Shown here: piece by piece, positions 12,074-44,569 of the stretch
Layout of the letters: each line of letters opens with the position of its first letter
Position numbering within the stretch: position 1 is the first letter of the stretch
DNA from: Truepera sp. bin119
GTDB taxonomy: Bacteria; Deinococcota; Deinococci; Deinococcales; Trueperaceae
Assembly: GCA_002239005.1 (NCBI GenBank)
Contig: MPNL01000012.1
Coordinates: 1 to 52,500 of the forward strand
DNA length: 52,500 bases
Direction: 5' to 3'
The notes under the pieces: generated by a model
Seen by the model: only the letters and a program-made list of their open reading frames with translations
What the model was told of the DNA's origin: nothing
Databases searched by the model: none
Translations under genes and position numbers: made by a program

Positions 12074-12356
12074 ATGGCGAGTGAACGGATCACGAACTAC
12101 ACCGAGGCGCGCCAGAACCTCAAGTCGGTGTATAGACAGCGTGACCGAGGATCGCGTACCGGTGATCATCACGCGGACGACGGGCGACCCGGTGATCATG
12201 CTGGCCAAGGCCGAGTACGACGCGACGATGGAGACGTTCCACCTGCTGCGCTCACCGCGAAACGCGGAACGCCTGCGCGACGCAATTGCCGATATCGAAG
12301 CGGGCAACGTGGTGCATGCCGACCTCGTCGATGGGGAGATCGCAGAGCGGCAGTGA
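12074..12356 (+). pseudogene. frameshifted YefM-family antitoxin
   Basis: The ATG at 12074 begins a typical YefM N terminus (SERITNYTEARQNLKSV), but the rest of the protein is in another frame (IDSVTEDRVPVIITRTTGDP, then HLLRSPRNAERLRDAI). An extra base near 12130, in the run 'gtgtatagac', explains the switch. Repaired, the protein would be about 93 residues, normal for the Phd/YefM fold that binds DNA and neutralises YoeB. The stop overlaps the yoeB GTG start by four bases (GTGA), the usual coupled arrangement. It could be a sequencing indel, but the toxin is broken as well, so decay of the whole module is likely. Confidence 0.75.
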
Positions 12357-12411
12357 GCCGGGAAGACCCGGCAGCCATCGCGTTCTCCCGGCAGGCCTGG
12401 GCAGGCTACTA

Positions 12412-12717
12412 CCTCTGCACAGTAATTTTGACCGATTGGAACAGGTCGGTTATTGCAAGACCAGAAGATCCTCTGAGGTGACGAGCACTTCGAGACTGCG
12501 GGGCCGTCCCGGAGTGCGAGAAGGAGCCCCAGGCGTTCCAGGCCCGGCAGCATCTGGTGAGCACTCGGCGCGGTGACTGTGAAGAACCGCTGCAGGTCGG
12601 CCTGGGCCGGTGGGCGGCCGTCAACCTTGGTATAGGCATGAATGAACGTCAGAAATTGGCTCTGTCATTCGGTGTACGATCAGGCCGCCTGAAACAGTCA
12701 AAACTACTGTGCAGAGG
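12412..12717. mobile_element. 306-bp MITE-like element with TIRs and TSD
   Basis: Terminal inverted repeats lie at 12412-12434 and 12695-12717 and match at 21 of 23 positions, starting CCTCTGCACAGTA. Both ends are flanked by TACTA (12407-12411 and 12718-12722), a 5-bp target-site duplication. The element interrupts yoeB, and its precise removal restores the reading frame. It is too short to encode a transposase and must be moved in trans, if at all. It carries a decayed small helix-turn-helix gene on the minus strand. Confidence 0.85.
12450..12668 (-). pseudogene. degenerate small HTH (LexA/MarR-like) gene inside the element
   Basis: On the minus strand one frame reads QFLTFIHAYTKVDGRPPAQ, then ADLQRFFTVTAPSAHQML and PGLERLGLL. 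This is a winged-helix DNA-binding pattern like the LexA N-terminal domain. The natural ending (RTPGRPRSLEVLVTSEDLL, stop TAA at 12452-12450) lies in a different frame, so there is a one-base shift near 12505. Another shift or stop lies just after the ATG at 12668. Intact, it would be about 73 residues filling almost the whole element. Small proteins of this kind are familiar from transposon-associated contexts, but I cannot name the family precisely. Confidence 0.55.
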
Positions 12718-12939
12718 TACTACCAGTACTGGATTCAGCACGACCGAACGGTGGCACGCCGGATCGCCCAACTGATCGAGGAGTGCCTGCGGGATCCCTT
12801 CCAGGAGGTCGGCAAGCCGGAACCGCTGAAGCACGAGTTCGCTGGCTACTGGTCGCGCCGGATCACCAAGGAGTACCGCCTCGTATACTGGGTAACGGAG
12901 GACCGGTGCACCGTCGTCCAGTGTCGCTACCGCTACTGA

Positions 12940-13166: not shown

Positions 13167-13203
13167 CTTCCAACCCAAGCCCCGCTTAGTAGGGGATTGA
13201 AAC
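13167..13203. repeat. solitary CRISPR-repeat-like sequence
   Basis: The 37 bases ending AGTAGGGGATTGAAAC look like one copy of a type I/III CRISPR repeat. They carry the GATTGAAAC terminal signature and an internal CCCC/GGGG dyad (13180-13183 with 13191-13194). I found no second copy in the window and no cas gene. It may be an orphan repeat left from a lost array, or a chance match. Confidence 0.35.
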
Positions 13204-44499: not shown

Positions 44500-44569
44500 T
44501 CCAACGAAGCCGCCCTTGTCCATCCTTTGACCCGAAGCTCCAACGAAGCCGCCCTTGTCCGTCCTTTGG
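44500..44569. repeat. 31-bp direct repeat, 39-bp period
   Basis: The 31-bp unit at 44500-44530 recurs at 44539-44569 with one mismatch (A at 44522, G at 44561). The unit begins TCCAACGAAGCCGCCCTTGT. The copies are separated by 8 bp, next to the IS256-like remnant. It is probably a tandem duplication in decaying DNA. Confidence 0.8.

What the first reader, a model, noticed from the sequence alone, without database searches (positions are those of the whole stretch)
12407..12722. 306-bp inverted-repeat element with TACTA duplication splits yoeB and carries an HTH relic
Seen: 23-bp ends matching at 21 positions, identical 5-bp flanks (TACTA at both ends), and exact excision restoring a 91-codon yoeB frame. 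The minus strand holds a broken winged-helix gene of about 73 codons that nearly fills the element. Small elements whose only cargo is a tiny HTH protein are not a standard IS type. They could be transposase-dependent passengers that encode their own regulator.
Basis: partly seen in the sequence, partly recalled or inferred. Interest (0 to 1): 0.75.

Follow-up and report, generated by a model that had tools for sequence, protein, structure and literature searches.

The report
Miniature leftover of a two-gene transposon
A 310-base mobile DNA remnant sits inside a bacterial toxin gene; it is a transposon that lost its enzyme gene but kept its ends and a broken piece of a small regulator gene that its full-length relatives carry intact.

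Summary
Window 12407-12722 is an inverted-repeat element inside a yoeB-like gene. The genome has a second full copy (93% identical) at an unrelated site and a truncated third. The target repeat is not TACTA: the second copy's flanks rule that out; TA (or 4 bp, CTAC/CTAG) fits both.
The element is an internal deletion of a 1.5-kb IS630-family insertion sequence. Complete relatives carry a DDE transposase and, about 30-60 bp away and divergent, a gene for a small LexA-type winged-helix protein, inside the same ends (CTAGTACCTCTGCACAG). The window copy keeps left end, last four transposase codons, most of the winged-helix gene, right end. No copy in this genome has a start codon for the HTH; window and second copy share a frameshift, so they spread after it, presumably by transposase in trans. 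No matching transposase was found in the assembly.
The element itself is ordinary (a MITE). Its parent is more interesting: of the 80 closest HTH relatives kept, 60 lie beside such a transposase; the HTH is under purifying selection and co-diverges with it. My searches of open-access papers found no description of this pairing; ISfinder could not be checked.

The parts
12410..12719 (.). Element core, TACC...GGTA, 310 bp (12409-12720 if the target repeat is TA)
   Evidence: 288 of 310 aligned positions identical with the C28 copy
12410..12437 (+). Inverted repeat beside the HTH stop codon (parental right end)
   Evidence: same ends as L040, L070, L069 and others
12690..12719 (-). Inverted repeat of the parental left (transposase) end
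12678..12692 (+). Last four codons and TGA stop of the parental transposase gene (D-Q-A-A-stop; relatives L030 K-Q-A-A-stop, L069 L-A-A-stop)
   Evidence: first 44 nt of the element match the L040 left end at 38 of 44, next best place 20 of 44
12673..12680 (.). Internal-deletion junction: transposase 3' end joined to the start of the conserved HTH part
   Evidence: about 1.19 kb present in L040 is absent here
12450..12674 (-). LexA-type wHTH relic, no start codon, one frameshift, one in-frame TGA
   Evidence: family from the C24 copy
12406..12409 (+). Left target repeat CTAC (TA at 12407-12408)
   Evidence: parse supported by the C28 copy
12720..12723 (+). Right target repeat CTAC (TA at 12721-12722)
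12081..12356 (+). yefM/Phd-like antitoxin frame (its first part seems to lie in another frame)
12353..12409 (+). Left piece of the interrupted yoeB-like gene (GTG start chosen by eye)
12721..12939 (+). Right piece of the interrupted yoeB-like gene

Best explanation
A non-autonomous, MITE-like internal deletion derivative of an IS630-family (Tc1/mariner-type) insertion sequence. The parent is about 1.5 kb: inverted repeats CTAGTACCTCTGCACAG..., a DDE transposase, and a divergent gene for a LexA-type winged-helix protein. One deletion of about 1.19 kb (size taken from L040) removed all but the last codons of the transposase, the intergenic region and the first HTH codons (shown by alignment). 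Copies then moved within this genome into TA/CTAG-like targets, one into a yoeB-like gene (shown by different flanks). Movement used a transposase supplied in trans that is not detectable here (inferred). In intact parents the HTH probably regulates the transposase promoter or the ends (inferred). The window copy lacks a start codon and an intact frame for it.
For: Three copies in the genome, two with both ends and unrelated flanks. HTH relatives sit divergently beside IS630 transposases: annotated as IS630 in 5 of 7 plasmid regions opened, a transposase match in 7 of 7 (in L034 only 72 residues at 40%); adjacent in 60 of 80 genome loci. 42 of 87 loci have paired ends 1400-1600 bp apart (recounted). 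The first 44 nt of the element match the L040 left end at 38 of 44; the 19 nt inside the repeat match at 15 of 19, reached by 0 of 2000 shuffles tested at 12 placements around that spot. The rest matches the L040 HTH and right end. The transposase has DDE_3 (PF13358, 3e-31). Window and C28 copies share the deletion junction and the frameshift.
Against: No autonomous partner in the 96.8% complete assembly: the one IS630-type transposase found there with the L035 query is 45% identical, broken, and has other ends. No element DNA match in the other 110 genomes of the phylum set (only part of the first-look candidates was scored), so the parent's donor is unknown. The left tip of the window copy is C where relatives have G. 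18 of 80 HTH loci have no adjacent transposase. Mobility in trans was not tested.
Confidence: 0.93

Rival explanations
1. A distinct class of tiny element whose functional cargo is its own HTH regulator, kept because the protein controls the transposase or the element's copy number.
For: The HTH fills most of the element; HTH genes in this family are under purifying selection (median dN/dS 0.22 over 1801 pairs, none above 1; 607 of these pairs are between loci with a long transposase match, median 0.21). L071 (Myxococcaceae) is another shortened element (638 bp) that kept the HTH with part of the transposase.
Against: In none of the three own-genome copies does a listed ORF with ATG/GTG/TTG cover the HTH start in frame; window and C28 share a frameshift yet spread. 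Cargo-free elements of about 143 bp with the same ends also exist (L166, L167).
Confidence: 0.05
2. The IS630-type copy elsewhere on the same contig (C71:64035-65249) is the autonomous parent.
For: It is the only IS630 transposase found in the assembly with the L035 query at E 1e-3.
Against: Its ends read CTAGTATTCCGTCACG, no HTH match lies there, its transposase frame is broken and 45% identical to the HTH-linked group.
Confidence: 0.02

Closest known systems
IS630 family / Tc1-mariner insertion sequences (ISY100, IS630)
   Same: TA-type target repeat, about 24-30-bp imperfect ends, DDE_3 transposase in the parent; ISY100 transposase mobilises mini-elements carrying only 30 bp of each end (passages of PMC2170065)
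   Different: A passage of PMC2170065 describes IS630 members as carrying single transposase genes; the parents here carry a second, divergent wHTH gene
MITEs / internally deleted IS
   Same: Short, both ends kept, no transposase, more than one copy, target repeat
   Different: Keeps most of a companion gene as relic; only two copies with both ends seen in this genome
LexA DNA-binding domain (PF01726; PDB 3k2z, 1lea)
   Same: Same domain family by profile
   Different: About 76-100 aa, no LexA peptidase domain seen; encoded inside an IS

Membership tests
MITE / internal deletion derivative | Both terminal repeats present, transposase absent | tested here: met
MITE / internal deletion derivative | Sequence continuous with ends of a full-length IS | tested here: met
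   (L040)
MITE / internal deletion derivative | More than one genomic copy at different sites | tested here: met
MITE / internal deletion derivative | Mobilised in trans by the partner transposase | not testable with these tools
   No partner found in this assembly
IS630 family | TA target duplication | tested here: inconclusive
   TA fits window and C28; 4-bp CTAN fits both too; L166 favours TA
IS630 family | DDE transposase of IS630 type (parent) | tested here: met
   Parents L040 and L035: PF13358, PF13565; annotated IS630 in 5 of 7 plasmid regions. Absent in the window copy
IS630 family | Single transposase gene, as a passage of PMC2170065 puts it | tested here: not met
   Parents carry a second gene: 60 of 80 HTH loci; 27 of 29 transposase rows in 16 selected genomes have the HTH within 300 bp
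Element with 5-bp TACTA duplication | Identical 5-bp flanks in each copy | tested here: not met
   C28 flanks TAGTA/TACTA

The most novel reading that the evidence does not exclude
A widespread IS630 subgroup is a two-gene transposon whose LexA-type wHTH protein is an integral regulator that binds the shared divergent promoter or the inverted repeats; short deletion derivatives that keep the HTH can act as trans-acting repressors of full-length copies, and the window element is the decayed end point of such a derivative.
Probability: 0.2. Interest if true: 0.55.

Novelty: new member of a known kind. Interest (0 to 1): 0.33.

Why it matters
The element itself explains an interrupted toxin gene and is ordinary. 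The lead it gives is that small 'MarR family' or 'SOS repressor' orphan genes annotated on rhizobial and other plasmids, and their homologues in many other genomes, are often the second gene of an IS630-type transposon, so they should not be read as host regulators without checking; and an IS630 regulator would be a new handle on how these elements control their activity.

Tried and rejected
TIR-like single hits in G011 (L009, L010) have three mismatches and no second end in that search, and were dropped as chance; the one HTH match of G011 lies on another contig. G111:C1:1938991 (L204) looked like an HTH-only copy, but the transposase-side end is replaced by unrelated sequence; L205 is a longer remnant. 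L165 (about 637 bp, Mesorhizobium temperatum) has related ends but neither gene. A defence-gene role for the HTH found no PADLOC match. C24's missing left end: a weak CCTCTTCACCAGTA resemblance lies beside it; not pursued. The 18 HTH loci without an adjacent transposase (plus 2 counted as contig-edge; L045 and L056 also start within 320 bp of an edge) were not resolved: L041, L056, L074 and L087 keep a recognisable right end, 14 others show none at the expected place with up to 4 mismatches to three patterns. My first wording of the yoeB spacing rested on an aromatic residue that only some orthologues have; it was restated.

Full report
Observation. Window 12407-12722 holds two 31-nt arms, 87% complementary, 254 nt apart. 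The end motif CCTCTGCACAGTARTTTTGAC (3 mismatches allowed) occurs twice in the window; 100 shuffles give none. The left neighbour is a Phd/YefM-like antitoxin frame and the right neighbour a YoeB-like toxin piece. So a real insertion lies in a yoeB-like gene.

Copies. The genome (G000, 3.2 Mb, 91 contigs, 96.8% complete, 3% contamination) has three copies: the window, C28:42068-42383 (93%) and C24:26823-27094 (92%, one end missing). A search with the end motif finds five ends: two, two and one. Flanks are unrelated. Window and C28 are identical at 288 of 310 aligned positions, C24 and C28 at 261 of 273, C24 and window at 251 of 273. None of the other 110 genomes searched in the phylum set matches the element DNA (the tool scored only part of its candidates).

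Boundaries. Reading the element as TACC...GGTA gives CTAC/CTAC in the window and CTAG/CTAG in C28, compatible with a TA duplication plus conserved tips. A related element of about 143 bp is flanked by CTAG and CTAA (L166), which favours TA. Against a clean TA reading, the window's left tip is C where relatives have G, and some relatives have altered flanks (L058, L060, L071, L097). I compared the two yoeB pieces separately with orthologues from 13 loci. One search printed nine of them, eleven; together 12 of 13 show the spacing hydrophobic-x7-[Y/L]-x-x-W, and L131 was read by neither. L122-L124 carry one sequence at this place in three genomes, so the independent number is smaller, and the pattern could find only this spacing. 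By that spacing the two pieces share one codon, which agrees with the corrected boundaries and not with the five-base one.

The HTH. The C24 copy reads as a 76-residue LexA-type DNA-binding domain (PF01726, E 8e-12; a profile of eight relatives finds LexA repressor structures, best 6e-9). No listed ORF (60 aa or more in the C24 and C28 loci, 40 aa or more around the window element) starts early enough to cover its N-terminal part in frame. Window and C28 share a frameshift in the C-terminal part which C24 lacks; the window has also an in-frame TGA. So the HTH is a relic here, and the frameshifted form had been copied.

The parent. tblastn with the C24 HTH finds 94 plasmid records, 40 Bradyrhizobium and 33 Rhizobium. 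I opened seven regions: in five the HTH is divergent to an annotated IS630-family transposase; in the other two none is annotated but tblastn finds transposase remains in the same place. In those five, paired ends enclose both genes: CTAGTGG(C/T)TC...CACAG in three, CTAGATCCTCGGCACAG and CTAGTGTGACGTC in the other two; the script found none for L032 and L034, though both keep a right end of the CTAGTACCTC type. Of these 80, 60 have a divergent IS630 transposase within 400 bp (one, L071, only its C-terminal part), 2 were set aside as contig-edge and 18 have none. 42 of 87 loci scanned (80 plus the seven plasmid regions) have paired ends 1400-1600 bp apart (recounted); the others were not sorted by cause, but contig ends, decay and loci without ends all occur among them. 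In 20 genomes that hold relatives, 19 carry the CTAGTACCTCTGCACAG-type end with up to 3 mismatches over a 25-nt pattern; the reversed control pattern found none.

Deletion. L040 (a gammaproteobacterial MAG) has a 1503-bp element whose HTH is 80% identical to C24's; L041 is 82% identical but its contig begins just before the HTH. The first 44 nt of the window element (HTH-sense orientation) match the left end of L040 at 38 of 44 positions, next best place 20; the 19 nt inside the inverted repeat match at 15 of 19, and 0 of 2000 shuffles do so at 12 placements around that spot. They carry the transposase tail D-Q-A-A-stop, as K-Q-A-A-stop in L030 and L-A-A-stop in L069; L040 itself has Q-A-A-stop in a neighbouring frame, its own transposase frame running on into the repeat, and L070 ends otherwise. 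The remainder matches the L040 HTH and right end (242 of 297 aligned positions identical; the global alignment contains a few spurious short blocks). Thus one internal deletion of about 1.19 kb, by L040's measure, made the element. Other shortened forms exist: L071, 638 bp, with HTH and transposase C-terminus; L166/L167, about 143 bp, without either.

Is the HTH part of the parent? For 33 distinct loci (44 before removing identical pairs; loci with gaps in the HTH match or transposase matches of about 300 aa or less left out) HTH and transposase distances correlate (Mantel r 0.73, 0 of 5000 permutations). dN/dS of the HTH has median 0.22 in 1801 pairs with 0.1<dS<1.5, none above 1; in the 607 pairs where both loci have a long transposase match the median is 0.21. 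In 16 genomes chosen because they hold relatives, 27 of 29 transposase matches (E 1e-60) have the HTH within 300 bp, the two others being C-terminal fragments (matched by hand). In 12 of those genomes with a looser limit there are 48 rows: of 25 rows of 62-100% identity, 20 have the HTH beside them (of the other five, two are pieces of counted copies and three are fragments, one of them an N-terminal piece without HTH), while 0 of 23 rows of 28-35% identity have one (by hand; HTH limit E 1e-8). The choice of genomes biases this towards HTH-bearing elements. The intergenic space is mostly 30-60 bp in the rows, many with back-to-back GGAGG-like motifs.

Mechanism. ISY100, an IS630-type element, needs only its transposase, moves mini-elements with 30 bp of each end and duplicates TA (passages of PMC2170065), so a 310-bp element with both ends should be mobile if a matching transposase is present. 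In this assembly the other IS630-type copy found has different ends, no HTH and a broken gene. The partner was therefore probably lost or not assembled; this is inference. That the HTH controls the transposase gene or the ends is inference from gene order, conservation and family.

Known or new. Ten literature searches were made. Those pairing IS630 with MarR/LexA terms returned no paper; in the other listings the titles and abstract beginnings shown do not mention it (one search listed 15 of 106). The library is open-access only and ISfinder was not available, so this is not proof of novelty. I read passages of PMC3606827 (an IS630 member with TTAA repeats and a transposase split over two ORFs, a different arrangement) and of PMC2170065; no paper was read whole.

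Verdict. A real, multi-copy, non-autonomous IS630 derivative with a relic of its parent's second gene: ordinary in itself, useful as a pointer to a two-gene IS630 subgroup.

Noticed in passing
window 13180-13203 (+): A single CRISPR-repeat-like stretch (likeness recalled, not searched), CCCCGCTTAGTAGGGGATTGAAAC; no second copy in the window with up to 3 mismatches.
   Followed up: partly
window 12081-12356 (+): By eye the yefM-like antitoxin is split over two reading frames near its start, so both genes of the toxin-antitoxin pair look broken.
   Followed up: no
L039:1536-2750 (G000:C71:64035-65249): A second IS630-type relic on the same contig, other ends (CTAGTATTCCGTCACG), no HTH match there, broken frame.
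   Followed up: partly
L002:1798-1817: The C28 copy lies at the 3' end of a lactate/malate dehydrogenase-family ORF (PF02866, PF00056), whose last codons and stop lie in the element's inverted repeat; a FUR-family gene lies on the other side.
   Followed up: partly
L042, L043, L046, L064, L066, L067, L068, L078, L083, L085, L089, L096, L106, L116: HTH homologues with no IS630 transposase match in the locus and no recognisable end at the expected place: perhaps stand-alone or domesticated genes.
   Followed up: no
window 44500-44568: Two 30-nt direct repeats, 97% identical, 39 nt apart start to start.
   Followed up: no
L166:412-555, L167 (genome of L060, Acidisphaera sp. S103): Two copies of a cargo-free element of about 143 bp with ends like those of the window element.
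   Followed up: partly
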